Below, in pieces: positions 5,775 to 63,665 of a stretch of 64,000 bases of DNA (positions are counted from its first letter, which is position 1; the number at the start of each line of letters is the position of its first letter). The DNA lies in assembly GCA_019400425.1 (NCBI GenBank), contig JAFREE010000084.1:1-64000 (forward strand), given 5' to 3'. This stretch comes from Hymenochaete sp. R1 (lineage: Eukaryota > Basidiomycota > Agaricomycetes > Hymenochaetales > Hymenochaetaceae). The notes under the pieces were generated by a model that saw nothing but the letters and a program-made list of their open reading frames with translations, made no database searches and had not been told where the DNA came from. Both the position numbers and the translations under genes were made by a program.

Positions 5775-6240
5775 GACGAAGGGTGGCCAACAAGTCTGCA
5801 ATCGAAAGAGAAAGCACCGTTTGGTCATTGTACGATTTATGATTCATGTATCTAGCCGCCACTTCTTTGCATAAAAAGACCTAGATATCGGTCGACCGAG
5901 TAAAGAAGACCGTCCATGTGGCGGCAGAGGTTGCCGGAGATCCGTGAGTATTAGTGTCAAGAAAGACTATAGGCCGCAAGAGGATGTTTTTAATGAGTGG
6001 TATACTCCACGAGACGCATCGAAAAGGTCGATTCAAGTTGACATCAATAGCGGTGAGCCTCAGGCTGAGAGTGAAACAAAGAAAGGAGAGTCGAGAAAAA
6101 GAATCCCAAATTGCCCAATGAGGAAGTCTTGTGCACGTGACCCTAGCCGAGTTTGTTGAGCCCCGAAAAAGAAAGAAAAATTCAAGATAGGATGATGAAA
6201 AACTGTGTAGCAGAACGGAACACACGAGAGAACGTCGTCC

Positions 6241-44049: not shown

Positions 44050-45251
44050 CTAATTCTCATCTATTTCCGGCCCACTGAGACGTCTCAACTGTTCCTCAAG
44101 TTCGCCCTCTTTCTCTTTAAGCTCGTCGCGCAGCTTTACTTCCTCCGCAGACTTCATCTCCAAGTCTTTCAATTCATTCGCACGTTGTCCCAGCCTCTTC
44201 TTCCGTTCCTCGACGTCCTTATTAGCCTCCTTCTCAAGTTTCACGATGTAAGTTTTGTCGTTTTTACTGGGCTCTGCCCCGGAGGCGTCTCTCCGCTTCT
44301 GGATCAAGTGGAGCTGCATTTCGATGAGTGCCCCGTGGTATGCGTCGTCCACGAGGAAGCGTTCGCGAGCGATGTCCCTTTCGTCAGCTGCTGCCGCTAC
44401 GCCCGTCGGTTGGAATTGTGCCAGGCGTTCCGCGATGGCATGGTAGTCTGTTTTTAGCAGGATGTTCTTAGTCTCTTCCATGTATTTGTACATGTTCACA
44501 TGCCAGTTCACCAACGCGCGATATAGAGCTGCGTAGAGGAACACGTCGGACGTTTCGTTAAATACATTTTCCGGAGCCCAACCTGCCATGATAATTCAGA
44601 ACGTCGTACAATATCACAGGAGGCGATAGAAAGAATAAAGGGGAAAAAAGGACACTCACCTCCGCTTCTAGCATAGATGTCAATGTTTCTTTTTATATCC
44701 TCGCGATACGCTTTGACGAGCTTTTCCCGTTCCTCGTCGCCCTCGCTCGACGCGTTTTGAATCTCCTTCTGAAGCATTTCGGTATGTTTATGGAACTCTT
44801 CCCACATGTGAATCGTCATAACTCGTCGACCCTGGGCACTGGTGTTGGTGCCAATAAAATGCATATACGAGTCCATGACAAGTACCCAAAATGTATGCTC
44901 CACTCGGAGTTTGACGCGTCGAGCTTCAGCTCCGGAAGAACCCCCAACTTCAATGAGCTTGTCCGCCGCTTCCAGAAGTACTTTCAACTGCTTGCTAAGA
45001 CTATTGGTCCGACCTGACCTGGCGTTCATTATTTCTTTCTCTTGTACGCGACTTTCTCGAAACTCGCGGTATTCAGGATCTTCTAAGGCATCACAGAAGC
45101 CATCGGCGTTTTGTTTGAGCTCGTCGATGGTGTCAATCTGCGTGGCGTGGCCCAAGTCTCGGAGAGCTGGCGGAAGACGCTGGCCATCATTCGCGGATCC
45201 TGGAGAGATTTTGCGTTTTTCGCCTGAAGCGCGTTTCGAACGTGAAGACAT
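44050..45251 (-). CDS. Orphan helical family, paralogue P1 (374 aa)
   Basis: Exons 45251-44660 and 44582-44050 join in phase 1 (77-nt intron) to 374 residues. It starts MSSRSKRASGEKRKISPGS, with a basic KRK-x-x-P motif. A central hydrophobic helix (HTFWVLVMDSYMHFIG) is followed by NASSEGDEEREKL. Exon 2 opens APENVFNETSDVFLYAALYRA, contains RERFLVDDAYHGALIE and ends in a Glu/Lys-rich coiled coil. These are the conserved blocks of all five paralogues at 46980, 48838, 58860 and 61715, with the intron at the identical place. P1 is the most divergent together with P3. No known domain is recognised. The composition suggests an all-helical, soluble, possibly nuclear protein. Confidence 0.8.
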
Positions 45252-46979
45252 CGGACTGAGGGGTCGACGTGCAAGCGGGTGAACGGGTGGAAATTAGAAG
45301 TGGCGGGGTGCACAAGTAGATATTGGCGACTGTGGCGGACTCAAACAGAGTCTAGCCATTGCCAATGCGTCAGTATGTCAAGACGGGCGAAGTACAATTG
45401 GCTAAACTCACAGATAGAATCCAGGAGGACTGAGATTGTCGCTGGTTCACAAGAAGTACGGCGTAAAACTCAAGCAGACCGTGGGAAACTATAATTGGTT
45501 ATTGCAAATTGACGGCAAGAGCACCGATTTGAAGGAAAGCTCTGCGATACGTGTGGCGACACTGAGGGATTGTATGTCTCTGAAGAGGCTATACTCAACT
45601 AAGCGCCGAATCGTCCTGCAGACGGTAGTCAGTATCTGTTCTCGCAAAGAAATTTGCAACATGAAACTGACTAGATGGACGTCCAGGAGATAGGAGTGGG
45701 AGAGGAAGAGGCGTTGAGAGAGAGTGGTGAAAGACGTCGTATTTTATACGAATGTGCTTAACTTTGCTGAACGGCTAATGCTGAAGTAAGCAGGCATTAG
45801 ACCCGGTCAGACGTTTTCCCCGCAAAACAGCACACATCCGGTACGCCCCAATCTTCTCAAAGCTTGACGTGAAAATGCTATGCTCATAAAGACGAGGCAA
45901 GCTCATCGAAGTACGTATCTCACTGGTGAGATTAAGTCCTGCATGAGTGAGCCAAAGAGCAGGCACCACAGAACGACAAGACAAAGCTCAAGATGCTGCT
46001 GTTAGGATGACGACTCTGCTCCCGTCGCTGAATGGGGCATCAGTTGTACAACCGCCCGGAGAGTGAAAAGTCTGTCGAACACGTCATACGGTCGGTCTTG
46101 AGGAGATTATCAAGATCAGAAGCCATCGTCCCTCTCTTATGTCCATGTAGTACTAGTATTTAGGGAAAGTTATTGTCACCAAAAACAGCACAGAGAAGGG
46201 ATAACTCACGAATCACGAAAAAAAAAACGACCCTTCGCCACTCGTATGCAGAGTACTTGCAAAGAAAATTTGGTCCGGCCTCCTTTTGGATGTTTGCCAC
46301 AAGCATTACGGGTTACGACTAGGAAACGAAATAAAGTGAGAAAGATGGTGAGGAGGAGTTTCATTGACACGATCCTAAATGAGATATGACATAAGCATTC
46401 TACCTTACATAATTCGGAAGAAAAGAGCAAGGCGAACCGACGTATCGCCACTGGCGACTTCCCATCATGTCCTGCAACTTCAACTTTTTTTGCTCTTTCC
46501 CCTTTTATTTTGCTACATAGCTACTTTCAACAGGCGTAGTATAATGCTGGGGCAGAGGAAGAATGGACGCAAACTTCAGCGCAATGTGAAGCCCAACGGC
46601 CCTATAAACCTTTGCCTTTCCTGGTCACATTGATACTGACACCCTTCTTTCTCTTCGACATCCACCATCTTCTAACATTGAAAGGTGAGCGATATAAGAG
46701 TCTCCGGTGACGCTCAGAACTATTCTTACCTACACTCTCGAACTGGAAAAGTGGTTGATAAACTGGGATCTCTCTCGTACCACTCATCGATTCGTTACCC
46801 GTTTTACGCCACTCAGCGCGAGCAAGATCTCTCACTACAGCTACGTACCTTTCAGTCGGCCATTTCTAGCCTCTGCTCTTCACCACGAAGTACAGGCTCA
46901 TCAGTATCGCTTGCCACTACCGACAATAACCACACCCACAACCTGACTTCGGTTCTACTGGGATACACAACTTTATCCC
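45252..46979. promoter_or_regulatory. Head-to-head intergenic region between P1 and P2
   Basis: About 1.7 kb between divergently transcribed paralogues. No additional gene is supported; the open frames are short. It must hold both promoters. Confidence 0.45.
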
Positions 46980-48118
46980 ATGTCTTCTGAAAGAAAACGC
47001 AAGGCTTCTCCAGAATCTACAGATGCCGTTCCTCGTAGTCGTCCAGCTCCAGCACCGCTTGAGGTTGACGACGAAACTTGTAACTTTGATCAGCTTAAAG
47101 AGAAAGTTCAAGGCTTCTTGGATCGATTGGCAAACGAGGATGAGCGCAAAACACTCGTGCACAATGAACGCATAATGAATTACAGAAAATCCTCTCACCC
47201 ACATCCACTCCAAAATGACATGGGGGACTTGCGATATGCTATCGACTACTTCTTGTCTGTTAGGAATCAGGACAAGAAACTGAAGACCGAAACCGCAATC
47301 CTCCAGTTGAGAATTCAACATGCTGTCTTTCTGCTTGTCATGGATTCATACGCCCATTTCATTGCGCTTAGCAAGGCGGAGAAGCAGTCAAAGACGGTCC
47401 GTTCGAGGCGTACCAACATGTGGGACACTTACGGCGGTTACGTCAACGATCTTTGGAACGACCTGCAGGACGCATTGCGCTGTGGCGACGAAGAACGGGC
47501 AAAAACTTGTAGTGATTTTCGAAATGACCTCATGATAAAACAAGACGCTCATGTTGCTGTAGGAGGTGAGATCAAGTCCTTGTCCCGACGATGATGTTTC
47601 TCTGTGACAAACTAATCATTTCGATAGAATGGCCCACAGAAAAGATGTTTAAAGATCTATCGGACGTCGTAGTGTATGCATCACTTTACCGTGCAGCGGC
47701 TAACTGGCATCTGCGTCAAATCGAAGAGTCTCGTGCCAAAGTACGAGTCAACGCTTTGTTAACCACGATTCATCCGATGCTCTCAGAGAAATTGGACAAT
47801 ACTACCGATGATAAGACGGTAGTAGATCGTGAACGATTCCTCGTGGACGACACATACTACCACGTTATCATTGCTGCGAAACACGAATCAATTAAAGACC
47901 GCCAAAGGTACAAACTAGATCCAACCGACAAAAGTTACATTTTGACCCGGAGAATCGAGGCTGGGGATCTTATCAAGAAACGAAATAACAGAATAGCCAA
48001 ACGCTTCAAGGAGCTCTCAGACGCACCGTCGGAGGAATCAGCGGAAATGAGCAAAGAAGTCGAGTCTCGCCAAGAGCAGGCACGAGCGCAGGCTGCTTTT
48101 AACAGCGAAGACCCTTGA
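46980..48118 (+). CDS. Orphan helical family, paralogue P2 (358 aa)
   Basis: Exons 46980-47565 and 47628-48118 join in phase 1 (62-nt intron) to 358 residues. It starts MSSERKRKASPES. Conserved blocks are NERIMNYR, HAVFLLVMDSYAHFIAL, NDLWNDLQDALRCGDEERAK and, across the intron, VGGEWPTEKMFKDLSDVV. RERFLVDDTYYHV then leads into a charged C-terminal helix. It is clearly closer to P4 and P5 than to P1 and P3, yet lies on the opposite strand about 11 kb away, so more than a simple tandem array has formed the cluster. The family and function are unrecognised; it lacks a signal peptide or plausible transmembrane topology. Confidence 0.82.
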
Positions 48119-48837
48119 GTATTTTACAGCCCAGATTATCCTTGTCTCGACATATATACAAGATTAGCTTCTGAGCCCAGAATCTACAAACACAATGTCT
48201 TTTACTTCAATCACGCCTATTCTTACGTTAGTGCTGTGTTTGAATATCCATACATCTTTCATAACTGTCCATCATATTTCAACTCCTATAAGTTACTACA
48301 TTTTGATCTCCTTTCATCATTTGCTTGTTTGAATGCGTGGATAGTTCCAGTGTGAACAGTTGTCAATTTATTGGGCACCTTATCTACAAAGAGAAGTGTA
48401 ATCACACAAGACCTTCGCTATCAACGCAAATTCGTTGTGGCAAAGTGCGGAAACGATTCATGCTCAGGCATATTGAATATTGGAACAAATTAAACAGGAG
48501 GAAGCATATATTATGCTACAATCCTCCGACAAATACTCAGTATTCTGGATCGATGCACCGACTGTTACTCAAAAGACATGACTTTAGACATTTTGAACTT
48601 CCCCTATCTTTCGGCTTGTGTAATCGTCGAACCACGACGAGATCAGAGAAGGACGGTGAAACTATAAGGAGCGGAGAAGAATATCGACGACAGAGAATGC
48701 AAGAGCTTTGAAAGGGCGAAAGTACCCGATAGCGCTTAAGGTAAAGAAAGGACGACCCAACTAAAAATAGACACTCAATAAGGGCTGGCCCGAGCTCGCA
48801 CTTCACCTTCGGGATCAAGAATTTATAAGAAAAATAT
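48119..48837. other. Convergent intergenic region between P2 and P3
   Basis: About 720 bp between 3' ends. No gene is supported. Confidence 0.55.
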
Positions 48838-50006
48838 CTAAAGAGCATAAGTATGATAAAAATTTTCTCTCTGCTCATTGAGTTGACCCTCCAGAAGTTT
48901 GAGCTCTCGTAACATCTCGTGCTCCTCAGGCAGCGCCAGTTTCTCAAGTTCCTTTCGACGTGCCACCTGATTCCTTTCTCGACTTTCCATGATCTCCTCC
49001 GTCTCTGACTTCAACTTGCTCCTGTAACGTCTCGTGTTATCGTTAAGTTTCACTTCAGGCCCTGTCCGCTTTCGAATCGCGTGAGTCTTTGCATATACAT
49101 ACACATGGTAGAACGTGTCATCCACGAGGAACTGTTCCCGAGCGTGCTGCGCCATATCGGAAATTAGAGGATCAAGCCGCGCAAAGTCCTTCATTGCGGC
49201 TGACAACAACGCATGGATCCCGGTTAAACTGCTACTCGTTCTTACGTCTGACTCTCCTAATTGAGTCTTATACCACTCAGCCGCTGCACGGAAGAGCGAT
49301 GCGTATAGTAGCAGGTCTGTCGGTTCTTTAAATAACTCTTTCTTGGGCCAGCCTGAAAAACGGTGAGATTGATTCGAAATGACAAACGAGCACAGGTCCC
49401 TGGGGAAGATGGAAACTCTCTCTCACCTGCACCTGCAACATAAGTTTGCTGCCTACATACAATCTTCTCCCGAAGCTTAATGCAAAGGTCTTCTTGCTCT
49501 CGTTTACCGGCCACATGCGCTTCCCAAAGCTCTAATCGAAGGTTCTGCACATATGTCCCGTACGCGGTCCACATGTCGAACCGCCTCATCGCTTGCGTCT
49601 CGTTCAAACGGCCCCGTATGAGGAAAACGAACATGTCCATATCGAACAAGAAGAAGGCATTGTCGACCCGAAGCTTAAGGAGTTTAGCTTCAGCTTTCTC
49701 GTCAATAGAAACTTCATCACAATTGGAAAGGGCTTGATAAATGAGCTCTACTTTATTCACTTCATCCCGGAGCGCGGGCCTTCCTTGATGTTTTTTCTTC
49801 GACGCTTCCTGCACCTCTAAAAGCTTGGCGCGCTCCTCTTTCTCTTCGGAGTTCTCGAGTTGATCCAAGACGATGTTCGCGGCTTTTCTGAATGCCGTGA
49901 TGTCGATGGGGTCTTGCTCTCGAAGAGCCGGCGGTGCACGGGAGCCGCCATCGTCTGTAATCGGAGGAACCTTGCGTTTCGCTTTGTTTTCGTTTCCGGA
50001 CGACAT
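48838..50006 (-). CDS. Orphan helical family, paralogue P3 (364 aa)
   Basis: Exons 50006-49427 and 49352-48838 join in phase 1 (74-nt intron) to 364 residues. The start MSSGNENKAKRKVPPIT fits the N-termini of the paralogues better than an in-frame ATG at 50099. Shared blocks are the KRK-x-P motif, NAFFLFDMDMFVFLIRG (matching FLLVMDSYAHFI), WPKKELFKEPTDLLLYASLFRAA and REQFLVDDTFYHVYV. A long Arg/Glu-rich coiled coil closes the protein. The sequence has diverged substantially from P2, P4 and P5. The function is unknown. Confidence 0.8.
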
Positions 50007-51680
50007 CGAGCAAATACACAGATGGCAAGGGGGAGGGGGAGGAAAAAGCGACTGGGAATGAACGTTGACAGAGATGTGTGGCGAGTCGGGTACTTTCACC
50101 GGATGGCTATATCTCGAGAAAAGCGGTGGTGACCTCTGTACGACGTGGTGAGCCAGATACAGACTGCAAGGACAAAAAAATTGGTAAACTTCGTTGATTC
50201 CAAATACGTTATCGATGAAATAAAGAAAGCGAGAGAGAGGGGGGGGGGGAGGGGAGAGTACTCGACAGGAATATGCGGTTCCGACTTGAAGGAAATCCAG
50301 AGGACCAGAGCTTGAGCAAAGTAAGAAACCAAATCAGGCTAGCACTGGCAGTCACGGTCGACCTGAGCAAAGTACTAAGCGGAAGCACCCCTCAGCTGCC
50401 AACGAAGGAAAACTCACCGTCCAAGCTTTCGCAGTAGCCTGGATAATGCTAATAGATGAAAAGAGAATGATCAGTCCGGAAGACGGGGAGTGACGAAAAA
50501 GAACGTACCCAGACCACCAACTTGAACTTGGAAGAACCCCATTGCGAAGACGATTCCAACGTCTTCTTGCATTGCAACTCGAAGTCCCCTCTTTCCCACG
50601 ATGCTATTAGGACGCTCGAGCAGGTCAGCCGCCGAGGGCCCTCCGACTACACGAACGGTTGAAAACCAGCGAAAAAAAAAGAGAACTCGGAGAGAAACCC
50701 GTTGACGTCAGACGAGGGCAAGTTTGAGCGCGAGGTAAGGTCAAAACGAAGGTACGACTCGGATGTGGACAACCAACGCCCACTGGCATCCGTAGGCGCC
50801 TACTTTGTATCCCAAACCTCGATTCCTGATTCTTGATTACTTCCGGCAATACGGATGTCGGATGCATTTGGCTGGCTGGAGCAGAGAGCTACCACCATAG
50901 ATCAAAGTCTACCAGTAGCTTGAGTCCGAGTCGAGTCGAAAGTTATCCTAGTAGTATCAGTAGCACCAGTAAGTCCGTCGGCGTCAGTCACGAGTCGCAG
51001 CTGCTTAATGGTTCAGCAGATTACGATCCTTCCTTCCTTTCTTTTATGCATGCATGCTCGCTTCAACTTGAAGTCCAGCACCAAGTCCAGCTCCACAAAA
51101 ACGAAAAACGAAAAACGAAAGAGGTCCGAAATACGTAGATGTCCGTCCATGAGAAAAGTAAAGTAAAAAGAAACCGAGAGAAAGGATGGTTGGTCCCAAG
51201 CTCAAGCCAGGAAGAAAGAAAAGAGAGAGAGAGAGGAGTGTCCGAGTCCGTGAGTGTAAGATTATTATGCTGATAAAAAAGACAAAAGACAAAAATCCTA
51301 CCAAGACAGGCTGAACGATGACGATAACGATTTCGATTTTCATGAAGGAAACGTAAAGACGGAAGAATTGAAAGAAGGATTGGTTCTAAAGGCATAAAGA
51401 GGAAGAAAAAATTGAAGAAAATTGAGTCAGAGGGCGTGGTGGAAGGGAAGGGATGCCATAACGTCCCTTACATGTGCAGGTGCGGGTGCGGGGTTTCTCT
51501 ATTTGGGGGATTGATGCTTAGAAGGGAATGAAACATTCAAGAAAAAATGCGAGGGCATTTGGGTGGAGGTTACGTTGTGACGAAGAGATTTGACGATTAG
51601 AAGAAATAGCAGAGATGACGGCGTAAGGAAAGTCAAAAACGCAAAAAAAAACGAAGAAAGAAAAATACAAGAGGAAGTGT
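50007..51680. other. Intergenic, possible unresolved minus-strand exon
   Basis: At about 50520-50630 on the minus strand a protein-like exon (containing SIVGKRGLRVAMQEDVGIVF) ends near a GT donor, but the following exons could not be joined. A G-rich run lies at ~50231-50258 and (GA)n at ~51220. Nothing else. Confidence 0.35.
50231..50258. repeat. Purine run with poly-G tract
   Basis: GA repeats followed by about ten G and a further GGGG, in non-coding DNA. This could form a G-rich secondary structure. Confidence 0.8.
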
Positions 51681-53590
51681 CTATAGAAGCAGACCAATCG
51701 GGAGAGTGACGAAAAGCGCAAAAACGAGGAAAGAAGGCAATAAGACGACGATACTCAACATCCCAGTCCGTACGAACCGCATCTCCCCCAATATCCGGAA
51801 CGGCCCAGGGAAACCCACCCTCCTCACCCCCTCCGACGTCGCCTGCTGCGGCCTGCTCACCACCCCGACGGTCATAACCGCCACAAGCCCATCACAAGCG
51901 TTCGTCGAGAACCCCTGAAAATGGTTGATCCCCTCGCTCGTATTGCTCAACAACCCCGCCGTATACACCACGCTCGTCTTATACGTCCACCCCTCGCTGC
52001 TCGTCTGGCCCTCATAGCTCGTCCCGTTCGTCACGTTCCGCGTGTCGATGAGGGACGACTGGGCGGTGGCGTTCCCGACGAGCCAGTCGCGCCCGAGGTT
52101 GTACCCGTTGTCGATGATGTCGTGTTGTTCTGCGATGGGCTTCTCGTACGAGAGGGCGAGGAAGTAGGCGTTGGAGGGGTGGGAGGAGCCGGATTGGACC
52201 CAGTATCGGAAGTGGTTTCCGCCTTTGATGGTTTCGGTGCAGGTGCCGAGGGTGGGGTCGCCGTAGTCCCAGCGCATGACGGCCGTTTCGTTCACTGGAT
52301 GATATTTAAAAAAGGGAATGACATTAGTAAATAGCTCGAAACAAACGACTACAAGCCAGTCAGACGACGAAAAAATGAAAACTCCGGAATGTAAAAAGTC
52401 TCTCTCGAAAGAATGCAGATGAATAAGAAATCTGGTTTGTGAGCATGTCTTCATCGCGTTGCTCGCCGACCAATACAAAATGACAAATGGGGATAGAACC
52501 CACGGTGCCCTCCGATCACTATAGAGGCGCGCACGAGCGCTAAAAATAGCTGGCGGGTGGATGGCAATGACTTAAAAGAAACTCCCTTCTTCCGTAGTAT
52601 CGAGGTACGGATTAGCTCGTAGGGGGCCCACAAAACTCCCGGTAACATACCCAAGAAAAGACACAAAAAAACAAACAAACAAAAAAGTATCCACTCACAA
52701 AACCCATTCCCATCGCCCAAGTTCGCAGCCTGGTCGGAGCCCGAATGTTGGCCGAGACACTCGCCGCTGAAGCCGATGGACGCAAAGTAGTTCCGGAGCC
52801 CGCCATTGTCCGTCGAGTCGACGAGCACGGCGGCGTCCGAGTTGGCGGTGAGGATAACGTTGATGGGTTCGCCGAGGCCTTCGGGGTAGGTTACGGGGAT
52901 TTGCTAGGACGAGGGAGTGTGTAAATTAGCTTTTAATTTTTTAATGAATTTATTTGGGAATCTTAGGAAAAATGGAGATGGCCAGGAGAACGGAACAAGA
53001 CATACTGTGAGCATGCTTCCGCCTATCGTGTTTGGGTCGAAGTACCCTTGCGAGGGGACGTCCGCCCTCTTCGACTTTCCCCACCTCCCGTAGCCGTACA
53101 GAGAGCCAGCACCCTCATCCCGAGCGTCCAGCCCAAGCCAAGACCTCACCAAACTCCTCTTCCGCGACCTCGAACTCGAGGTCAAGTTTTCGGTTCCGGT
53201 TCCGGTTGTGTCTCCACGGGATGACGTAGAGGCAGACGAGCCACTTGGCTGAGCCGCCGGGACAGTCTGCGTTTGCGTCGCGCTCAGACTCAGAGTTGGA
53301 CTCAATGACGATAATGATGATGGCGATGGCGATGGTGAAAGTGTAGAAGCCGAGACGGAGGAAGCGAGAGCCAGCGAGAGGGTGCACGCAAAGACGAGCG
53401 ACGAGACCGAACGATGCGTTGTCGGCTGACGTCGACATCGACGTCGTCTCCCACCTCTTGCGCACGTTTCCGACTCCTCTTTCAAGTTACACGACACCAA
53501 CACCGACGCCGTGCCGCTCGTTCTTCGCTGATATTCCGAGTCGGGGTTGCCATGATAAGCCGTAGAGTTTGACGAGCTTGCCGTGTCCAT
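51681..53590 (-). CDS. Membrane-anchored extracellular glycoprotein, unrecognised family (467 aa)
   Basis: Exons 53590-53006, 52903-52699 and 52294-51681 join in phases 0 and 1 to 467 residues. After a basic N-terminus comes one hydrophobic segment (SLVFACTLSLALASSVSAS), then a Ser/Thr-rich linker. A folded domain follows: NTIGGSML, VTYPEGLGEPINVILTANSD, GECLGQHSGS and NHFRYWVQSG, with several N-glycosylation sites (NGT, NTS, NAT, NET). The chain ends in a hydrophobic helix (GMLSIVVLLPSFLVFALFVT) that could be a transmembrane segment or GPI signal. Cell-surface location is inferred. I do not recognise the family, although it reads like a conserved fungal cell-surface protein. The first hydrophobic segment could be a late signal anchor or could mark a downstream true start. 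Confidence 0.72.
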
Positions 53591-55510
53591 CCTTTCCTTT
53601 CTTTATATTCTTCTCTCTCTCTCTCTCCAAAGGATCTACAGGAAGCGCTGCTTCTATTTTTCCCCGACTGCCGACTGCTTGGCCTGATGATGAGCTAGAT
53701 CTGGGCAAAATGATAGCGAGTAGCGGGGGGCTAAGAGCGAATCTGGCAGAGATGGCGAGGCGAGGCGAGACGAGCCTGATGATGACGATGATGCGAGACA
53801 GCCAAAAGGAAAAGAAGGGGGAAAAGGCGGAAACGACAAGTGAGACCGAGAGGCGAGAGGCGAGCTCGACGATCAACGTTGAGCCAGGAGCTGTTCGCTG
53901 CCCGTCGATGTATGCAACGTCGATGTCGAGAGAGAAAGAGATGACGATGGTGGGTGGAAAGCAAAAGGGCAAGGGAAGGGAAGGGGAAGGGGCAGGAACG
54001 TGGTGGTCGTCTGTGTGCAGCCGGTGCGAACAAATCCACCTTCACTCCCTGAGTCCCTCAAATATTTAATATCAATCTCCTGTAATTATTACAACAATCA
54101 ACGATCTCGCACGCCTTCAACACGCAGAACAATATAACGGTCTCCCCCAAGACTTGCCAGCTTGCAAGGCAGTGCTTGGTGCTTGGTAACCTCTCGTAAT
54201 ATTCGTCTGTAAAAGAAAAAATACAATACAAGGGAAAAGGTACACCGGACGCCGGCCTCTCCGCAGATTTGAAAGCAACTCAAACTCACGGCGGACACTT
54301 AAGATATTATTTTAGGCGTCGAGATTGTGTACTATATATGCTAAAATACGCCAATATCAATAGTCGTGGAAAGAGTTGGGGTGGAATGAATGCACAAAAG
54401 TACGCAACGTCGGGTACTTCCAACTTCAGGTAGTACTACGGTAATAGACTCAGACGAATGGTCAGCTCCCTTAGTTACGCAATGCCGCGCCATCATGGAC
54501 GACATGATGGAATCCCAATCCATTCCTCGGATCCTTGTTCCAAAACAACAATGACAAAAGGAAAGTCCAAGGGACGTTACCCGAGAGACAGAATACAGAG
54601 TCTACATTCTTCCGAGTTAGGTAAGCGTTACCTACATTGGCATTGGCATCTCAAAGCTTCCATAATGCATATACAGATACAGACATTCCTTATCTACAGT
54701 AATTCCACATACCGATGATACAAACCTTTCCGCTGCGTCGCGACAACACCCGTTCTTCTTCCCTCGTCCTCGCTAGAAAAGACGTAGCCATCAATATCGA
54801 CCGATGGCATGCTCGATCATTTTTGCGTCTTTCTTTTTTAGTTTTGGAAGTACCCAAGCTCGACGCCCTTCAGATGTAAGCCCTGGTAGGTAGAAAAAAA
54901 AACGAAAACGAAAGTAGTGAGCGAGGCAAATCGATACGATACCAAAGAAGCAAATAAATAAATATAAAGCCGAAAAGAAAGGGAAACGACAAAATAGTAA
55001 GAAAGTCATGCAAATGTAGGAAGAAAACGTAGTGGCATTTGGTACCAGAAAAGTTTTCGGGGGAATCCGAGCCTCTTGACCAGAAACGAGACAAGGAAAG
55101 ATATCGTAGCATGAGAGCAAGCCGACGTCTCAAAACGAAAACGAGACTCAGAACCCCAGGCACACGCACACGACACGTATCGTATCGTATCGTATCGTAC
55201 TGTGTCCGCCTCGATAACGTATCATGGGGAGACGTCGGACGTCGCAATACGAACGCAATAACATATGCCTATGTTATCGTCTTCCGGTCCCACGAAGGTG
55301 GAAATACTTCCGCGAGGCTCAGCTCGAGCCCGGGAGCTTCGAAACGACTCAATTGAGAAGCTCGGACGAGGAAGGTGTGGTTGGAGATAAGGAGGGAGAG
55401 GGAACGTGATACGTAGTGGAAGAGAAAATCCCGAGCGGGTCGGTGAAAGAAGAGGAAGGAACCAAGTCTCGAATTTCGAATTTCGGAACTAAAAAAAAGG
55501 AGAAACTCAC
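53591..55510. other. Intergenic, no gene supported
   Basis: About 1.9 kb. It includes a (TC)n run at ~53613-53631 and five CGTAT units at ~55176-55199. Open frames overlap on several strands with no protein-like signal. The last exon of the monooxygenase gene may lie at its right edge. Confidence 0.5.
55176..55199. repeat. (CGTAT)5 microsatellite
   Basis: Five tandem CGTAT/C units in non-coding DNA. Confidence 0.9.
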
Positions 55511-57686
55511 AAGGAATTTACAGTAAAACCTCGTCGTCGCAAAGTCTCCAGGAGCGAACCACAGCTACAGCAGACGAAAAAATATCAGCCCAGTTCCGGC
55601 CAAATCAACACCAACAAAGCAAGAGAGGAAGCATAAGCAATTGAAAAAATAAAGGAAAGAGGTTGAAAGAAAAGAGAAAAGAGAGAAGAGAGAAGGAAGA
55701 CGCACCCCAGGCTGGCCAGACGGCTGGTACCCGACACGATGCTCCCCATACTCGTCAATACCCCATATACGGCCCGTACGATCGACCATCTCGTCCCCCA
55801 GGAGTCTGCGGAGCTTGTCCCCGACATGCGTGTAGCCCGTTCTGTTGGAATACCAAGGTTTGTTAGGGTTTAAAGGTCATAGGTGAGGGAAGAAAGGGTG
55901 GCGGGGGACGCACGCGAGGATGATGGCGTCGACGTCGAGCGTGGAGCCGTCGGAAAAGACGACGCCGGTGGGTGTGAGTTTCTCGATTTCGCGGCCTTGT
56001 TTGATCTTGACCTTGCCTTGCTTGATAAGGTCTGCGCAGCCTACGTCGATGTCTGTATACACGGTCATGTTAGATATGCTGCCACCCAGGTGAGAACACA
56101 GATCCGAAATGAAACAAAACGAAGAAAGAAAGGAAGAAAGAAAAAAGGACGCACAATATCCGCCCAACTTCTCATACACCATCACGAGCTGCCCACTCCC
56201 ATCCGGGCCCGCGTTCAACTCGAACCCAGCCCCCCTAAGCCCGTCCAAAACGTCCTTATCAAACTGCTCCGCAAACCCCTGCATCAGCCTCCCCATCTCC
56301 CTCACACACCCCATCGGCATCCCCGCAAACTTGAAGTCGCTATAAAACACCGGCACGCCCGGCGGGAACGCCGCCCCGAAGGTCGCCGCGAGGTACTTGT
56401 CCGACACGACGCACGTCGACGCGCGTTGCAGCACCGTCACCGCGGCGGAATCGTGCACGGAGCAGTCCTGCGCGATGTCGAGTCCCGAGGTCGCTGCGCC
56501 CACGACGAGCACCTTCTTCCCGCGGAACGCCGCGCCGCCCTTGAACGTCCCCGCGTGCAGGAGCGAGCCCTTGAATGACTCCGCGCCGGCGTAGAGCGGG
56601 ATGGCGGGGTCGCCGAAGGTACTGATGGCGAAGACGAGGTGCTGAGGTCGGAGATGGTAGGGCACGCCGCCGTTTCGCCGGATGGTGAGGGCCCAGCGGT
56701 GGGTTTGGGGATCGTATCGGGGGTGGGGGTCGAGCGTGGAGGAGGTCCAGACGACGAGGTCTTGCGAGAGGGTGTATTGTTCCATCCAGTCGGCGAGTTT
56801 GTCGCGTGGGGTGTAAGTGGGCCAAGTGGTAGGGAAAGATTGATATAGGACTACAGAAAAAAACATTCAAATTATGAATTACTGTTGTGGGATGAAGGAG
56901 AACGAACAGTTATGATGCTCTTTGGGCGTGTGCAGGACGAGAGTCGGGTAACGGTCCCGCCATACATCCCCGACGCGCGCCGTCTGCTCAACGACAAGGA
57001 CCCTGTACCCGAACTGCTTCAATCTTGCCGCAGTTTGAAGCCCGGACTGTCCAGCACCCACTACAGAGAAAAAGAGGAAGAAAGTTCAAATCGACTCTGT
57101 AAATCAAAATCTTGAGTTACGCACCGACGATAACCTGGGGATCATGCTCGACCTCCTCTGCCCTCCGCTTCTTCACCTCCTCCCACGACATCGAATGATT
57201 TTCATAAACCCCAGTCTCACAGCCCGCCTCCTCGTGCCCTTTCCAGTCATCGAGCATCAACATCACCGCCATCGCCTTCGGCTTTTCCCCCTCCTTCGGA
57301 TACTTCAGCCTCGCATGCCCCTTCCCCACACCCTTGGCCGTCTCGAAATTAAACGTGAGCTCGACGATCGGGATCGCGGGCCCGAATTGGGAGCGGGATG
57401 GCTGGCCGAAGGGGCTCGGGTCGAGGTGGAATTTGGAGAGGGGTAGTTGCAGCGAGGAGGAAGAGAGAAGGGGTTCAAGGTAGGTGGAGATCTGGTCATG
57501 TCCTTTGCGCGCCTGGAGAGAGGGTGAGAAGATGAGGATGTCGCGGAACCAAGCGTCGGGCTCTAGGATGTCGATAAAGGCGCTGAGGTTGGGCTGTTGG
57601 GGGTTAGAAGTGAAAGCTTCGGTGAGCGAGTTGAGCCACGTCTCGGCGAGCTTGTACTCGGGAGACGGTGTTGTTGAGAACGACAT
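55511..57686 (-). CDS. Flavin-containing monooxygenase with extra N-terminal domain (580+ aa)
   Basis: Six exons (57686-57125, 57060-56908, 56850-56155, 56052-55914, 55841-55706, 55564-55511) splice in frame to 580 residues. The final short exon after the GTGAGT donor at 55510 was not resolved. Residues ~1-185 look like a small SnoaL/NTF2-type domain (LAETWLNSLTEAF; ARLKYPKEGEKPKAM). VIVVGAGQSG (~188) is the FAD dinucleotide fold and VLVVGAATSG (~350) the NADP fold. ATGYTH (~517) is a typical motif of FMO-like enzymes. The enzyme would oxygenate a nitrogen, sulfur or ketone group of a small molecule using NADPH and O2; the substrate is unknown. Fungal proteins of this build are often annotated as dimethylaniline monooxygenase-like. 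A TATA box sits ~90 bp upstream. Confidence 0.8.
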
Positions 57687-57771
57687 TGGGAACAAACGAT
57701 AGCTGGTTGATATGCGAGTGTCGTTGGGTTGAGATAAGCCTTCTTGCCTCTACGACAGAGCTACAGACGTC

Positions 57772-57778
57772 TTTTATA
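57772..57778 (-). promoter_or_regulatory. TATA box of the monooxygenase gene
   Basis: TATAAAA on the minus strand lies about 90 bp before the ATG at 57686. Confidence 0.55.
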
Positions 57779-58729
57779 GACACCAGAACTCGAGAGCACC
57801 ACGACGAAGAGGGACCCTGATCACGATGGACGCACGGTGGCCGTCCCGTTATGGACGAATGTATTGAAGACGACCTCGGGACGGTCGAGCGCGGCGGATC
57901 GTGTACGTATACATTATCATTATGGCTTTAGTGCCGTTTCTGATAGCTCTCATGCTGCATGATGCGTTCGAGTTTCGAAGATGGGCGGTCGTGGGAGGGA
58001 TGTAATTGTAAAATCGGGGTTTGTAAGGCTCCTTCACTGGCTGGCATGAGATACAACTGGAAGTCGTGCATGTCGCTGCCATGATGATGATGATCGCGAC
58101 TCGTCCATTCGCCTCCGGTGAACAACAGGAACGCTGGAATGGGGCCCGTTCTGGGAGCTCTGAGTCTTGCGAGAGTAGTGACCACGTTTTTCTGGGTGTT
58201 TTTGCTACCACTAGGGAGATGATGGTGCCGATATCGCTTGTGCGTTATCCGTCCGAGTCTTCGCGGCGTTGAACTGAACTGCTGCACATTCAAATGTCAT
58301 TGAAATCTGACACCGTGTTTGAGAGTCGGATGGTTGAAGATGCTGCGGATATTGTCGTAATGAACGAAATATCGTGTCCCACCACGTTACTGTACATGTT
58401 TCCTTTCCGTTGAAAGTCGGAGGGTGAGGATGAGGGTGAGGTATAGAACGAAGCCGATTTGTTCGGAATAAGGTCAATAGATCACATGACAATCAGTCAG
58501 TCTTACATAACTGCCCTTGATTTAGTCGGTCGCAGCTCGTACGTGGGGTCCCTTTGTTGTTTTTTTCAACTCTCATGTCGATATTGATCTACCTTGCAGA
58601 AACAAGCCGAAAACGAGCAACTAACCCTTTGCTTCGGGAGAGGCGTTAAGCTTACTTCTAGATCAAGATCTTTCTATACCGAGAGTCGAGCATGAGCAAT
58701 GGACTACTTATGCAATGAAGAAAGGTACG
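57779..58729. other. Intergenic, unresolved minus-strand readings
   Basis: Overlapping minus-strand frames at 57849-58293 and 58211-58492 are partly protein-like (ERIMQHESYQKRH), but no spliced gene could be built. Confidence 0.35.
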
Positions 58730-58859
58730 CATGAATTGCCTAAACGTAGTTCTGAACTGAGGATGAAAGTGATAGTGACAAGAAACCAGCATTACATCTT
58801 CTTCAAAGACAAGCTTACACGTCTTTATCCACACTAGGCAGCAAAGGTAAATCAGGCTG

Positions 58860-60016
58860 TCAAATGTCTTTTTTGTTGTAAGCAGCCTGCTCCTTCGCCT
58901 GATCCTCTCGAAGCTGGATCTCCAGGTTCAGTTCCTCGACTTCCTCCGAAGGCGCCTCTAACAGTTCCTGAATACGTTCAGTCAACCTCTTCAGCCGGTC
59001 TTCAATGAGTTCAGATACACTATTTTGCATGTTCTTGATTTCATTCCTGAGAGGCGCGTCCACCTTGAACTGCTGTAAACGTGTTCGAATCTTGTGACGC
59101 CTTGCTTCAATGGCTACGTGGTAATACGTGTCGTCTACAAGGAACCGCTCTCGAGCAATCTGTGACTTGAGTTTGTTATCGGCAGGAAGAGACTGTTCGA
59201 CGTCTTTCAGGGCGTTCGAGAGCGTTAGACGGGTTGAGCCTAGTAAACGGTTCAATCTCATGTTGGAAGCCTTGGATTGGCACAGATTCCAGTTGGCCGC
59301 TGCACGGTAGAGCGACGCAACCACTACAATGTCCAACGGATCTTTAAACATCTTTTCTATGGGCCATTCTATCGAAATGATTAGTGTGTAATAACGAAAC
59401 ATCATCGTCCGGACAAGGAATTAATCTCACCTCCTATAGCAACATGAGCATCCTGTTTTGTCATGAGGTCTTTTCGAAACTCATTACAAATCCTTGCCCG
59501 TTCTTCGTCACCACAGAGCAATGCGTCCTGCAAGTCATTCCAAAGATCGTCGACATAGTCGCTGTAAGATCTCCACATGCTGGTACGTCTCCAACGCACC
59601 GTTTCAATTTTGCTTTCTTCCTTGCCGATGTTTATGAAATATGCACAAGAGTCCATGACGAGCAGGAAAAACGCGTTCTTGGCTCTCGTCCGGAGCAACT
59701 TAACTTCAGCCTTCGTTTTCATGTCCTGGTTCGATTCAAACAAGAAAAACTCGATAGATTTTTGCAAGCTACGCATTTTCATCTGGAGCGGGTGCGGGTG
59801 CGACGTTTGTCTGTAGTTCATGATGCGTTCATTTTGAATAAGCGCTCTGCGCTCATTCTCGTTCGCCAAAGAATCGTAGAAGGCTTGAATCTCGTATCTA
59901 AGCAGGTCAAGTTTAGAAGGTACGTTGTCAGCGTCTCTCTCCTGTGGAATCGGTCGACCGCGAGAGCCGTCATCCACCAATTTCGGAGCGAGCTTGCGTT
60001 TTCCAGGAAGTGACAT
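58860..60016 (-). CDS. Orphan helical family, paralogue P4 (364 aa)
   Basis: Exons 60016-59431 and 59368-58860 join in phase 1 (62-nt intron) to 364 residues. It starts MSLPGKRKLAPKLVDD. All family blocks are present: NERIMNYRQ, NAFFLLVMDSCAYFINI, DDLWNDLQDALLCGDEERAR, GGEWPIEKMFKDPLDIVVVA, RERFLVDDTYYHVAIEA, and a C-terminal coiled coil ending EQAAYNKKDI. It is nearly collinear with P5 and differs by scattered substitutions and no indels in the reading frame, consistent with a recent duplicate that is still selected. The start is supported by the matching start of P5. An upstream in-frame ATG (60205) lies in the 5' leader and is not conserved in P5. Confidence 0.85.
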
Positions 60017-60217
60017 AGAGTGGGTAGCGAAGAGAGTGTGGCGAAGGATAAAGTTACCGGTGTGAGGCGGCACTCCGGTGACCTCTTCGCCAATCTGATG
60101 AGATATGAGTGATTTGTTAAGCATATGCATAGTGAACAATGATGATGCCCACATACAAAGGTTTGTAGAAGATGAACGTTGAGAGGCGTGTACCAAGGCA
60201 TGCATGAAAAGCGAAGG

Positions 60218-60224
60218 TTATATA
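60218..60224 (-). promoter_or_regulatory. TATA box of P4
   Basis: TATATAA on the minus strand lies ~205 bp before the ATG. The surrounding sequence (GCGAAGGTTATATACTA on the plus strand) is conserved upstream of P5. Confidence 0.55.
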
Positions 60225-60457
60225 CTACCCGTGGCCTTCGCTTTGAACCAAAGTTATCACCCATTCTCCTTCCGATCCGGCATTGTACAATGCACTTCGT
60301 ATCTTGACGGTGTCTTCGTGGCAAAATAAAAGGGTAGAAAGCATAAAGTTTAAAAGTCGCGGGACAAGAATAGATGGGAAGACACGGGTAACTTAGTAAG
60401 CCTTTTCTTTGAGAGTTATGTAATGTGCAATATGCTTATGTCAGTTCTTGTTTACGC

Positions 60458-61589
60458 CCCATCCGGTATCAAACTTAACGGAGGGTAACGTAGGTCCCAG
60501 GAATACCAAGAATATTCCTATATGCTTTAATATAGGCCTCGTCCAGAAATCGGTCCTCAGACCTGTATTTTTCCGGAAATTCTTGAGTTTCTGGACCCGT
60601 ACTTTCTTGGCCTACTACCAGGGAGGGGATAATATTCCCGGGTCCTTGTTAACGTTAACGCGTTTTTTTCTACGCTTTGGGCTCGATTGTTTAGCCCATG
60701 TTAATGTTAACTTTGTTGCTAAATAGAGGCCTAGTAAGGAAGGGTCCCTTCTCTGACCGCTTTCTTTTGGTTTCGAGGAGATACAACTATGACATGGGAA
60801 ATCTACCGCGATAGTGCTCGCTTGCTGTGTGGTTGAGGCCACTCCTGTTCAGTACTTTGCTCGAGTCGCCCCGAGTCGTGCTTCGCGAAGGCCTTGGATT
60901 TGATTTGAGATCTCATTTCTTCACTGTTTTTTTTTCATGCTCGAACTACCTCTTTCACTCTGATGACAGCCCTTTCCATAGCGGAAGAAGAAGCGTGAGT
61001 GCCTTAGTGGTTGTCTGGTGTTGTCTGAGAGACACGCAGAGGCAGTTTAGAGAGCTTAAAGCTGAGGAAACGCAATTTGATGAAGAGGAAGCCATCCATG
61101 GAGGTCTTCATGCTGTACGCTACTTTTTCTAATAGAGTCACGGACCAGGGTACCCTTTTCCAATATTTTAGAAGTGAGCTTAACAAGATCCTGAGCTCGT
61201 CCAGAAACAAGGTACGTCTCTAGTTCGCTTGGTTTCGATAGAGGCAGCGAACAGGTATCGACATCGACGCATCGCTCCGTAGCGGTTGCATTGCTTTTCG
61301 GCTGGGATTTGGAGAAGGTGAACGAGCTGTTCTTGAAAAATGATTATTAGAGGTTAGTGATAATGAAGTCGGCTCTACTGAAAGAGATGACGCACTGTAG
61401 CTCGAGGAGGATGAAGGAAGGGTCGAAGCCGTTGAGAAACGAGATGACGGCTGAACTGAAGTTCAAAAATCATTCACACTTGAATTATCCACTGCAACGT
61501 CCTATGACGAGACAAATAGGAATATTAATATGCTGAAGAAAGTATCCACTTGTTGTAAAGTAAAGGACACCTCTATCAAGTACGCGTGA
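60458..61589. other. Spacer between duplicated units P4 and P5
   Basis: About 1.1 kb, present in one copy only. It holds palindromic GTTAACGTTAAC (~60649) and GTTAATGTTAAC (~60700), and a plus-strand protein-like fragment at ~61030-61130 (RELKAEETQFDEEEAIHGG) ending in a stop. No complete gene or transposon was recognised. Confidence 0.4.
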
Positions 61590-61714
61590 AATGTTTAAAC
61601 ACAGTTCTGAACTAGGGATGAAAGTGATAGTGACAAGAAACCAGCATTCCATCCCCTTCAAAGACAAGCTTACAAGTCTTTATCCACTCTAAGGAACAAA
61701 GGTAAACCAGGCTG

Positions 61715-62870
61715 TCAAACGTCTTTTTTGTTGTAAGCAGCCTGCTCCTTCGCCTGATCCTCTCGAAGCTGGATCTCCAGATTGAGCTCCTCTACTTCCT
61801 CCGAAGGCGCCTCTAACAGTTCCTGAATACGTTCACTTATCCTCGTCTTTCGATCCTTGATGGTTCCGGATACTCTATCTTGTATGTTCCTGATTTCATT
61901 CCTGAGAACTGCATCCACCTTGAACTGCTGTAAACGTGTTCGAATCATGTGATGCCTTGCTTCAATGGTTACGTGGTAATATGTGTCGTCTACGAGGAAT
62001 CGCTCTCGAGTAATCTTTGACTTGAGTTTGTTTTCGACAGGAAGAGATTGCTCGGCGTCTTTCAGGGATTTCGAGAGCGTCGGATGGGCTATGCCTAGTA
62101 TACGGTTCAGTCTCATGTCGGAAGCCTTGGCTTGGCACAGATTCCAGTTGGCCGCTGCACGGTAGAGCGACGCAAGCACTACGACGTCCAACGGATCTTT
62201 AAATATCTTTTCTGGGGGCCATTCTATCGAAATGATCAGTAAGCCACAACGACAACCATCATCAGGACAAGGATTTAATCTCACCTCCTACAGCAACATA
62301 GGCGTCCTGTTTCATCATGAGGTCTTTTCGAAACTCATTGCAAATCCTTGCACGTTCTTCGTCGCCACAGCGCAATGCGTCCTGCAAGTCGTTCCAAAGA
62401 TCGTCGACATATTCGCTATAAGTGTCCCACATATGGAGTCGCCTCGTACGCACCGTCCCAGTTTTGTTTTCTGCCCTGCTGATCGCTATGAAATATGCAT
62501 ATGAGTCCATGACGAGCAGGGAAAACGCGTTCTTGGCTCTCGACCGGAGCAATTTGACTTCAGCCTTCGTTTCCATGTCCTGGTCGGACTCCAACAAGAG
62601 AAAGTCGGTAGATTTTTGCATGGTACGCAATTTTTCACGGAGTGGATTCTGACGTTTTGTTAGTCTGTAGTTCATGATGTGTTCATTTTGAATAAGCTCT
62701 TTGCGCTCATCCTCGTTCGCCAAAGAATCGCAGAAGGCCTGAAAGTTGCTTCTAAGCAGGTCAAATTCAGAAGGTTTGTCGTCAGCGCCCCGCCCCTGCG
62801 GGGCTGGCCAACCACGAGAGCCGGCATCTGCCGATTCCGGAGAGAGCTTGCGTTTTCCAGAATGTGACAT
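61715..62870 (-). CDS. Orphan helical family, paralogue P5 (364 aa)
   Basis: Exons 62870-62285 and 62223-61715 join in phase 1 (61-nt intron) to 364 residues, the same exon lengths (586 and 509 nt) as P4. It starts MSHSGKRKLSPESADAGS. The blocks NEHIMNYRL, NAFSLLVMDSYAYFIAI, DDLWNDLQDALRCGDEERAR, GGEWPPEKIFKDPLDVV and RERFLVDDTYYHVTIEA are intact, and it ends EQAAYNKKDV. Function, partners and location are unknown; KRK-x-S-P at the start looks like a nuclear-localisation and phosphorylation motif. Its promoter has gained ~150 bp relative to P4, so the two copies may differ in expression. Confidence 0.85.
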
Positions 62871-63233
62871 TGAGGGAGAGGGATGATGTATGTCTTACCC
62901 TGGACAAGGTCGAGTCGCGGGATATGACTATGGTGGATAGTGACAGTGGATGCTGCCGAACTTCGACTTCGAAGTGAAATGCAAAGATGGAGGATAACCG
63001 AGTCAGATACTCGTGGCTGTCACAACAGATCTTGCTCGTACGGAGTGTGTGGCGAAGGATAACGTTACTTGTGTGAGACGGCACTCTAGAGACACCTTCG
63101 TCAATCTGGAAAGACATGAGTTATTTGTTAGGCACGTGTACAGTGAATATCGATGATGCTCGCATACCAAGGTTTGTAGAAGATAAACATTGAGGATGAA
63201 GAGGTGTATCAAGGCATGCAAAAAAAGCGAAGG

Positions 63234-63240
63234 TTATATA
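63234..63240 (-). promoter_or_regulatory. TATA box of P5
   Basis: TATATAA on the minus strand in the conserved context shared with P4. It lies ~365 bp before the ATG because of the ~150-bp extra leader sequence. Confidence 0.5.
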
Positions 63241-63665
63241 CTAGTACCCACCGATCTTCACTTTGCGCTAGAACTTTTGCACATTCTCCTTCTAATCCCG
63301 CATTGTGCAATGCACTTCATATCTGGATGATGTCTATGCCGCAAAATAAAAGGGCAGGGAGCATAAAGTTGCAGGACAAGAGGGACTTGAAGACGCGAGG
63401 ACCCTCTCTGAGAATTATGTAATGTGAGAAGTGATTATGTCAGTTCTTGTTAAGGGCCGGCCAATTTGTATCCCAATAGCATTTTATTTATTATAATCTT
63501 ATAATTTGTTTGAATGTTGTGTACATCGTACGTTGTAGATGGTGATAGCTATACCGGGTCACTATGCGAATCTGCTGCGGGTCGTCGAGCGTTGTGTGGG
63601 CGCTGAAGACTCCGAGTCGAAGTGCAAGTTGTGCAACCGCGCAAGCTCTCCCTTCTTCTTTTACC

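What the first reader, a model, noticed from the sequence alone, without database searches (positions are those of the whole stretch)
44050..62870. Five-member orphan protein family (P1-P5) clustered in 19 kb
Five genes (44050, 46980, 48838, 58860, 61715) encode 358-374-residue proteins with the same blocks: KRK-x-x-P at the N-terminus, FLLVMDSYAHFI-like helix, DEER, ASLYRAAANW, RERFLVDDTYYHV and a C-terminal coiled coil. All have one intron at the same position and phase. I recognise no known domain. Copies lie on both strands with unrelated genes between them, and divergence ranges from near-identical (P4/P5) to distant (P1, P3), so the cluster has been growing for a long time. This is the best candidate here for an undescribed system.
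Basis: partly seen in the sequence, partly recalled or inferred. Interest (0 to 1): 0.82.

Follow-up and report, generated by a model that had tools for sequence, protein, structure and literature searches.

The report
Clustered orphan helical-protein superfamily in fungus
The five genes belong to a much larger group of related genes in what looks like a fungal genome, encoding helical proteins, perhaps nuclear, that match no family in the libraries searched; the family is real and under selection, but its job is unknown.

Summary
P1-P5 are two-exon genes (358-374 aa) with one phase-1 intron at the same column. P4/P5 are 74% identical in protein, not near-identical. The family is much larger than stated: the host assembly (27.8 Mb, probably fungal) holds 14 intact close members (A), two more subfamilies (B, 5 loci; C, 10) and at least 6 further relatives, mostly clustered. 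A, B and C are homologous over most of their length (profile E 1e-16 to 1e-17). AlphaFold2 gives all-helical models for both exon products (pLDDT 80 and 86). Both halves show the same helix order and match weakly by profile, suggesting duplication of a five-helix unit, one per exon. A tail motif R-x-[P/A]-P-x-x-R is in 16 of 28 members against 0.2 expected. Pairwise dN/dS is 0.18-0.55 in the measurable A pairs. No Pfam, PDB-sequence, prokaryotic or viral relative was found, only apparent metagenome alleles of two members. Best reading: nuclear-targeted helical binding or scaffold proteins multiplying by duplication. Function is inferred, not shown.

The parts
44050..45251 (-). P1 gene: exon 1 45251..44660, intron 44659..44583 (77 nt, GTGAGT..CAG, phase 1), exon 2 44582..44050; 374 aa
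   Evidence: model; alignment; intron column
46980..48118 (+). P2 gene: exon 1 46980..47565, intron 47566..47627 (62 nt, GTGAGA..TAG, phase 1), exon 2 47628..48118; 358 aa
   Evidence: model; alignment; intron column
48838..50006 (-). P3 gene: exon 1 50006..49427, intron 49426..49353 (74 nt, GTGAGA..CAG, phase 1), exon 2 49352..48838; 364 aa
   Evidence: model; alignment; intron column
58860..60016 (-). P4 gene: exon 1 60016..59431, intron 59430..59369 (62 nt, phase 1), exon 2 59368..58860; 364 aa
   Evidence: model; alignment; intron column
61715..62870 (-). P5 gene: exon 1 62870..62285, intron 62284..62224 (61 nt, phase 1), exon 2 62223..61715; 364 aa; apparent alleles of both exons found in a metagenome (P0001, P0002)
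58725..60452 (-). P4 copy of the tandem duplication unit (gene, 3' flank and upstream region)
   Evidence: 58725-60020 vs 61580-62874 85%, 60032-60452 vs 63043-63451 74%
61580..63451 (-). P5 copy of the same unit, with extra bases (62875-63042) between coding start and upstream match
45553..45559 (-). TCGCCAC element 308 nt upstream of P1 start codon, sense orientation
46445..46451 (+). TCGCCAC 535 nt upstream of P2 start (weakest of the set; may be chance)
50078..50084 (-). TCGCCAC element 78 nt upstream of P3 start
60038..60044 (-). TCGCCAC element 28 nt upstream of P4 start
63049..63055 (-). TCGCCAC element 185 nt upstream of P5 start

Best explanation
P1-P5 belong to an undescribed superfamily of soluble, all-helical proteins. 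Shown by sequence and prediction: a short N-terminal tail, disordered in the P5 model, with a basic KR(K/R) cluster and in most members an R-x-[P/A]-P-x-x-R motif, followed by two predicted helical bundles, one per exon, joined at a phase-1 intron. Probable: the two bundles descend from duplication of one five-helix unit. Shown: the genes lie mostly in local clusters, several of which hold each other's closest relatives, are under purifying selection, have fragments among them, and in two gene pairs show a mosaic synonymous divergence best explained by gene conversion. Inferred: the basic tail takes the protein to the nucleus, the tail motif docks to a common partner, and the variable helical faces bind different ligands, so the family works as a set of non-enzymatic binding or scaffold proteins whose specificities diversify by duplication.
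For: Gene models and intron. 14 intact A members on three contigs. B and C subfamilies with profile homology A-B E 1.4e-16, A-C 1e-17, B-C 3.3e-17. Split codon of the intron at one column in 14 A and 3 B, one column off in 1 B, three columns off in 10 C, next to alignment gaps. Five residues identical in 28 of 28 besides the start Met (W148, R181, D208, D275, R320 in P5). K6 and R7 each in 25 of 28. R-x-[P/A]-P-x-x-R in the tail of 16 of 28, against a mean of 0.2 and a maximum of 3 in 1000 shuffles of the tails. Highest 19-residue Kyte-Doolittle mean 1.64 among 28. AlphaFold2 exon 1: pLDDT 79.8, pTM 0.72; exon 2: 86.4, 0.84. Exon-1 unit vs exon-2 unit: hhalign score 23.7 over 124 columns in the register given by the helices; reached by 0/100, 0/100 and 1/100 shuffles. 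dN/dS 0.18-0.55, 0.22-0.39 in five B/C pairs. Change-point p 0.0002 in two C pairs.
Against: No expression, localisation or binding data. The repeat signal has an hhalign probability of only 8.9%, and smaller profiles did not show it. The uneven synonymous divergence is not significant in 5 of 8 pairs tested, P4/P5 among them (p 0.58). Nuclear targeting rests on a short basic motif. The tail motif was defined on the same sequences it was counted in, and P2, P4 and P5 lack its strict form. One Cys (C47) is kept in 22 of 28, so a metal- or redox-linked role is not fully excluded. No site-level positive selection was tested, so 'diversifying specificities' is inference. No fold comparison was possible.
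Confidence: 0.42

Rival explanations
1. The family is a self/non-self recognition repertoire (somatic incompatibility or recognition of foreign nuclei or parasites), with diversity kept up by duplication, conversion and haplotype divergence.
For: Clustered family with fragments, mosaic divergence in two C pairs, an apparent metagenome allele of P5 differing at 17 of 364 residues, 12 of them carrying the P4 state, and contig ends C20/C276 carrying the same gene 92.3% identical (dN/dS 0.23 over 210 codons). The published het-d/het-e family evolves by concerted exchange (PMC1805685, abstract and outline seen).
Against: No NACHT, WD40, HET or other recognition domain in the 22 members scanned. Family contigs are not those carrying STE3 or homeodomain matches. 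dN/dS is below 1 in every gene pair measured over the whole gene. No background heterozygosity is known, so the allele divergence cannot be called unusual.
Confidence: 0.15
2. The genes descend from a mobile element or an endogenised viral protein (for example an all-helical nucleoprotein) amplified and domesticated in the nucleus.
For: Multi-copy, orphan, all-helical proteins with a basic tail; some contigs end at or near family sequence (C20, C276, C141).
Against: No relative among IMG/VR contigs (one peptide pattern, 7 matches, 0 confirmed); PHROGs matched at best at E 0.0023 in one of 15 members; no transposase or RT domain in the 20 window ORFs scanned; a conserved intron; the P4/P5 duplication carries flanking sequence. 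Terminal repeats were not searched for, and the viral fold library was unavailable.
Confidence: 0.12
3. Ordinary nuclear structural or regulatory proteins (for example development-linked scaffold proteins) whose copy number drifted up, without a recognition role.
For: Purifying selection; a shared sense-strand element upstream of 12 of 14 A genes suggests common regulation.
Against: At least 35 loci plus fragments is many for a housekeeping role (my judgement); no DNA- or chromatin-binding domain was recognised.
Confidence: 0.25
4. A secreted effector family acting on a host or competitor.
For: Expanded, clustered orphan families are typical of effectors (general knowledge).
Against: No strongly hydrophobic N-terminal stretch in 28 of 28 (highest 10-residue mean 0.79; hydropathy only, no signal-peptide predictor was run); basic clusters near the N-terminus.
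Confidence: 0.04

Closest known systems
het-d/het-e family of Podospora anserina (PMC1805685, abstract and outline seen)
   Same: Fungal multigene family (10 members) with exchange between copies.
   Different: Those proteins have WD repeats with positions under positive selection (abstract); here no WD40 or NACHT domain was found and positive selection was not shown.
DELD family of Piriformospora indica (PMC3192844, passages seen)
   Same: Lineage-specific expanded family without known domain in a small (25 Mb) basidiomycete genome.
   Different: DELD proteins are small, secreted, with a fixed C-terminal motif; a degenerate DNA pattern for it had 0 matches in this genome, and the present proteins lack an obvious signal peptide.
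Snowball (snb1) of Agaricomycetes (PMC10949477, passages seen)
   Same: Shows that unannotated gene families are common in mushroom-forming fungi and can matter.
   Different: SNB1 is predicted to have seven transmembrane helices and is present in almost all agaricomycetes; the present family has no obvious membrane span and is highly multiplied.
Five-helix-bundle repeat proteins such as talin/vinculin (recalled, no call)
   Same: Units of roughly 160 residues with five long helices, arranged in tandem (recalled).
   Different: No sequence match to any solved structure; structural comparison could not be run.

Membership tests
NLR/HNWD-type fungal recognition proteins | NACHT/NB-ARC core with WD40, ankyrin or TPR repeats | tested here: not met
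   Pfam scan of 14 A and 1 B and 3 B (one repeated) and 5 C: no match with E below 0.001; the sporadic weak ones are other families
Secreted effector families | N-terminal signal peptide | tested here: not met
   Hydropathy of the N-terminus in 28 of 28; a proxy only, no dedicated predictor
Mating-type genes | Homeodomain or STE3 receptor, or location at those loci | tested here: not met
   STE3 matches only on C293, Homeobox_KN on C68 and C201; family contigs are C320, C74, C168, C276, C141, C79, C224, C20, C90
Transposon or viral proteins | Transposase, RT, integrase or viral protein match | tested here: not met
   Pfam, PHROGs, IMG/VR scan with one pattern; fold library of viral proteins not available
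Transposon or viral proteins | Terminal repeats or target-site duplications around copies | not tested
   Only the P4/P5 duplication was delimited
Nuclear proteins | Functional nuclear localisation signal | not testable with these tools
   Basic cluster conserved: K6 and R7 each in 25 of 28 rows; localisation needs an experiment
Two-unit five-helix repeat proteins (proposed architecture) | The two halves are homologous | tested here: inconclusive
   Pooled profiles: probability 8.9%, E 0.0037; 0/100, 0/100, 1/100 shuffles reach the score; reversed profile 17.7 vs 23.7; same helix order in both models; not seen with smaller profiles
Talin/vinculin-like bundles | Structural similarity | not testable with these tools

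The most novel reading that the evidence does not exclude
An undescribed nuclear recognition repertoire of a fungus: dozens of two-unit helical proteins, one unit per exon, sharing a docking tail, with specificities renewed by tandem duplication, gene conversion and diverged haplotypes, used to tell own nuclei from foreign ones or to restrain intruding nucleic acids.
Probability: 0.12. Interest if true: 0.87.

Novelty: new variant of a known kind. Interest (0 to 1): 0.52.

Why it matters
At least 35 loci in a 27.8-Mb genome form a superfamily that no library searched here describes, which is a large investment for an unknown purpose. The invariants (five residues, tail motif, intron) and the ready-made pairs (P4/P5, C74 5k/7k) make it directly testable. 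If it proves to act in recognition between individuals, it would bear on the poorly known molecular basis of somatic incompatibility in mushroom-forming fungi (general knowledge; a search for four terms together found no paper in the held library).

Tried and rejected
Protein database: three searches used. A1 (5 members) gave nothing among 7998 scored candidates. A4 (15 members) gave one hit among 7989, P0001, 96% identical to P5 exon 1. A5 (exon 2, 14 members) gave two among 5795: P0002 (94% to P5 exon 2) and P0003 (the C168 165k gene with 2 differences). No control showed how many fungal proteins that database holds, so 'orphan' is not proven for fungi at large. GTDB genomes: one peptide pattern, 89 matches, 0 confirmed. 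Weak Pfam matches (Bunya_NS-S, TetR_C_37, SICA_beta, ApoO and others, best E 0.0012) were rejected: in one or two members each, and below the cut-off where it was printed. NCBIfam gave one SDR-oxidoreductase match at E 0.00048 and one other at 0.0089, in one of 15 members each, and PADLOC three at 0.0037-0.0067 in one member each; rejected as sporadic. PDB profile searches gave nothing below E 0.03. Telomere repeat TTAGGG x4: 0 matches in the assembly, so subtelomeric position could not be judged. tRNAs: none in the window (bacterial settings); Rfam: none in 43000-64000. P4/P5 gene conversion was considered and not supported (p 0.58). (A4 vs A6, E 1.9e-31) is not used as proof because the two alignments share one B member; one search keeps the groups apart.

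Rows dropped: one B model (C276 61.9k) with a non-consensus donor and phase 2 was left out; the C20 57k model had phase 0 with a poor donor. Model choice was by profile score, which favours the common intron position. Six of 28 modelled members (1 B, 5 C) were not scanned against Pfam.

The upstream motif was found by counting words in the same 14 sequences in which it was then tested, and the paralogues are not independent, so its p value is optimistic. In the first count (500 bp, both strands) the 7-mer was in 11 of 14 genes, against a maximum of 9 in 30 random draws of window segments.
Full report
OBSERVATION. A script that enumerated GT..AG introns gave several candidates for some genes; in each, one phase-1 intron of 61-77 nt with a GTGAG donor was chosen. 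The proteins are 374, 358, 364, 364 and 364 aa, and all five carry KRK-x-x-P. Pairwise protein identity among the five runs from 27% to 74%; P4/P5 is 74% and 85% in DNA, so 'near-identical' is wrong. P4 and P5 arose by tandem duplication of a unit that includes upstream sequence (58725-60452 and 61580-63451).

THE FAMILY IS LARGER. The window is the first 64 kb of a 106-kb contig (C320) of a 27.8-Mb, 336-contig assembly. Searching that genome with P5, P1 and P3 found nine more intact genes: two on C320 (83k, 95k), five on C74 (5k, 7k, 11k, 21k, 23k) and two on C168 (165k, 182k), modelled. That makes 14 intact A genes. Fragments lie on C74 (9.4k, only exon 2 matched, with an internal stop) and C297 (51 residues matched, one stop). 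A distant hit on C276 opened subfamily B, five loci on C276 and C141. Another on C79 opened subfamily C, ten genes on C79, C276 and C224 plus fragment matches at C79 255k. Further relatives lie on C90 (two) and C20 (four); three of these six were modelled and three are seen only as matching ORFs. The one at the C20 end has a 92.3% identical copy at the start of C276, possibly an allele. The total is at least 35 loci: 14 + 5 + 10 + 6. The search tool says its counts are lower bounds.

ONE SUPERFAMILY. Profile comparison of separately aligned groups gave A-B 98.8% (E 1.4e-16), A-C 98.95% (1e-17) and B-C 98.9% (3.3e-17), aligned from the N-terminus through most of the common core. Of 29 A, B and C models, 28 have the intron in phase 1; the exception has a poor donor and was dropped. 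In the 28-row alignment the split codon falls in one column in 14 A and 3 B genes, one column off in 1 B and three columns off in all 10 C, beside gaps. Of the three further models, two have phase 1 and one (C20 57k) phase 0 with a poor donor. Five residues besides the start Met never vary in 28 rows: W148, R181, D208, D275 and R320 in P5 numbering; C47 is kept in 22 of 28. The tail keeps a basic KR cluster (K6 and R7 in 25 of 28 each). A strict motif R-x-[P/A]-P-x-x-R occurs in 16 of 28 tails against a shuffled mean of 0.2 and maximum of 3 in 1000; a looser form in 20 of 28 against a mean of 4.6 and maximum of 11. Both patterns were framed on these sequences, and the members are related, so the counts show retention, not independent gain. 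The tree puts A, B and C in separate clades with 99-100% support, groups the five C74 genes (100/99) and P2/P4/P5 (100/99); P3 groups with the C168 pair (97/93). So clusters grow locally, with some older exchange between them.

STRUCTURE. AlphaFold2 models were made exon by exon from the five window sequences. Exon 1 of P5 (195 aa): pLDDT 79.8, pTM 0.72, with 34 residues without helix and mostly low confidence, then helices 35-51, 53-60, 63-66, 76-93, 99-133, 137-167, 171-194. Exon 2 (168 aa): pLDDT 86.4, pTM 0.84, helices 3-6, 10-34, 40-59, 65-97, 104-136, 140-164. The long helices run in the same order of lengths in both halves. Smaller profiles of the halves did not match. Profiles pooled from 28 members matched over 124 columns in the register the helices predict (score 23.7, E 0.0037, probability 8.9%). 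Column shuffles reached this in 0 of 100, 7-column block shuffles in 0 of 100 and 11-column block shuffles in 1 of 100; the reversed profile scored 17.7. I take the internal duplication as likely, not proven.

NO KNOWN RELATIVE. Pfam: no match with E below 0.001 in 14 A and 1 B member or in 3 B and 5 C members (one B member is in both). PHROGs, NCBIfam and PADLOC (15 members each) gave a few matches in single members, the best at E 0.00048. PDB sequences: best E 0.032. IMG/VR and GTDB, one peptide pattern each: no confirmed relative. The 5.8-billion-protein database gave three proteins, all close to members found here. I did not control how well that database covers fungi, so restriction to this lineage is not shown. 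Eight paper searches turned up no paper whose listed title or start of abstract describes such a family; subscription journals are mostly not held.

EVOLUTION. NG86 dN/dS in the 10 of 91 A pairs with pN below 0.35 is 0.18-0.55; several of these have dS above 1 and are rough. For P4/P5 it is 0.55 (bootstrap 0.36-0.79), with dN about equal to dS in codons 0-90 and 180-270. Five B/C pairs give 0.22-0.39. These are genes under constraint. A permutation test for uneven synonymous divergence was run on 8 pairs: two C pairs gave p 0.0002 (their 3' parts are far more alike than the middle), P2/P5 gave 0.0046, and five were not significant, P4/P5 included. Gene conversion is the simplest reading for the two C pairs. 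The apparent metagenome allele of P5 differs at 17 of 364 residues, 12 of which carry the P4 state; shared ancestry may explain this as well as conversion.

REGULATION. Word counting upstream of the 14 A genes picked out TCGCCAC: 11 of 14 within 500 bp on either strand, against at most 9 in 30 random draws. In sense orientation it is within 700 bp of 12 of 14 genes, and never in antisense, against a window density of 0.109 per kb and strand. TCGCCACA occurs 8 times in the window against 2.04 expected, with 0 of 100 shuffles reaching 8; four of the eight lie upstream of P1, P3, P4 and P5, two lie inside P2 and P5 in antisense, two elsewhere. By the positions, 7 of the 12 genes have a TATA box 180-206 nt before the element, so it may lie in the transcribed leader; no control was run for that spacing. 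It is absent upstream of 4 of 4 B genes (two with only 395 and 421 bp held) and present in 1 of 4 C genes with 700 bp; the other six C genes had 79-267 bp held and none. The p value is optimistic because the word was chosen from the same data and the genes are related.

CONTEXT. Among the ten ORFs scanned between 41.6 and 61.3 kb two have Pfam matches, a ferric-reductase-type protein and a flavin monooxygenase; of ten in 6-40 kb, four do, including a cytochrome P450 and a kinase. No transposon domain was seen in these 20. STE3 and homeodomain matches are on other contigs.

HOW IT PROBABLY WORKS. None of the five invariant residues is a Cys or His, no catalytic signature is evident to me, there is no membrane span or signal peptide by hydropathy (28 of 28), and the tail has a basic cluster. 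I infer soluble nuclear proteins that bind partners through helical faces, with the common tail motif docking to a shared factor. Steps shown: gene structure, homology, clustering, constraint. Steps inferred: nuclear location, binding, diversification of specificity.

VERDICT. A real, sizeable superfamily that I found described nowhere in the libraries searched. As a kind of thing it is a lineage-expanded orphan family, which fungi often have; the Snowball paper says the Coprinopsis cinerea genome alone contains 158 families of conserved developmental genes that are unannotated or of unknown domain (PMC10949477, passages). What lifts it above the ordinary is the copy number, the apparent unit-per-exon plan, the retained tail motif and the shared upstream element.

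Noticed in passing
L078 (C20:75500-78610) and L079 (C276:1-2300): The two contig ends are 92.3% identical over 1149 bp and carry the same family gene, so they may be two haplotypes or a very recent duplication.
   Followed up: partly
window 45553, 46445, 50078, 60038, 63049 and upstream of other A genes: A sense-strand TCGCCAC element lies upstream of 12 of 14 A genes, in 7 of them 180-206 nt after a TATA box.
   Followed up: partly
L069 (C276:104100-108500): Two subfamily C genes have a 3' part almost identical at synonymous sites (dS 0.12) while the middle is saturated (dS 2.4), as after gene conversion.
   Followed up: yes
window 34363-34580: A 117-nt tandem repeat (1.9 copies) lies inside an ORF (33409-34596) with a protein kinase match.
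   Followed up: no
window 6211-7842: Large ORF with a linker-histone domain match.
   Followed up: no
L064, L067, L068: Subfamily C proteins (450-493 aa) carry an extra C-terminal region of roughly 90 residues absent from A.
   Followed up: no
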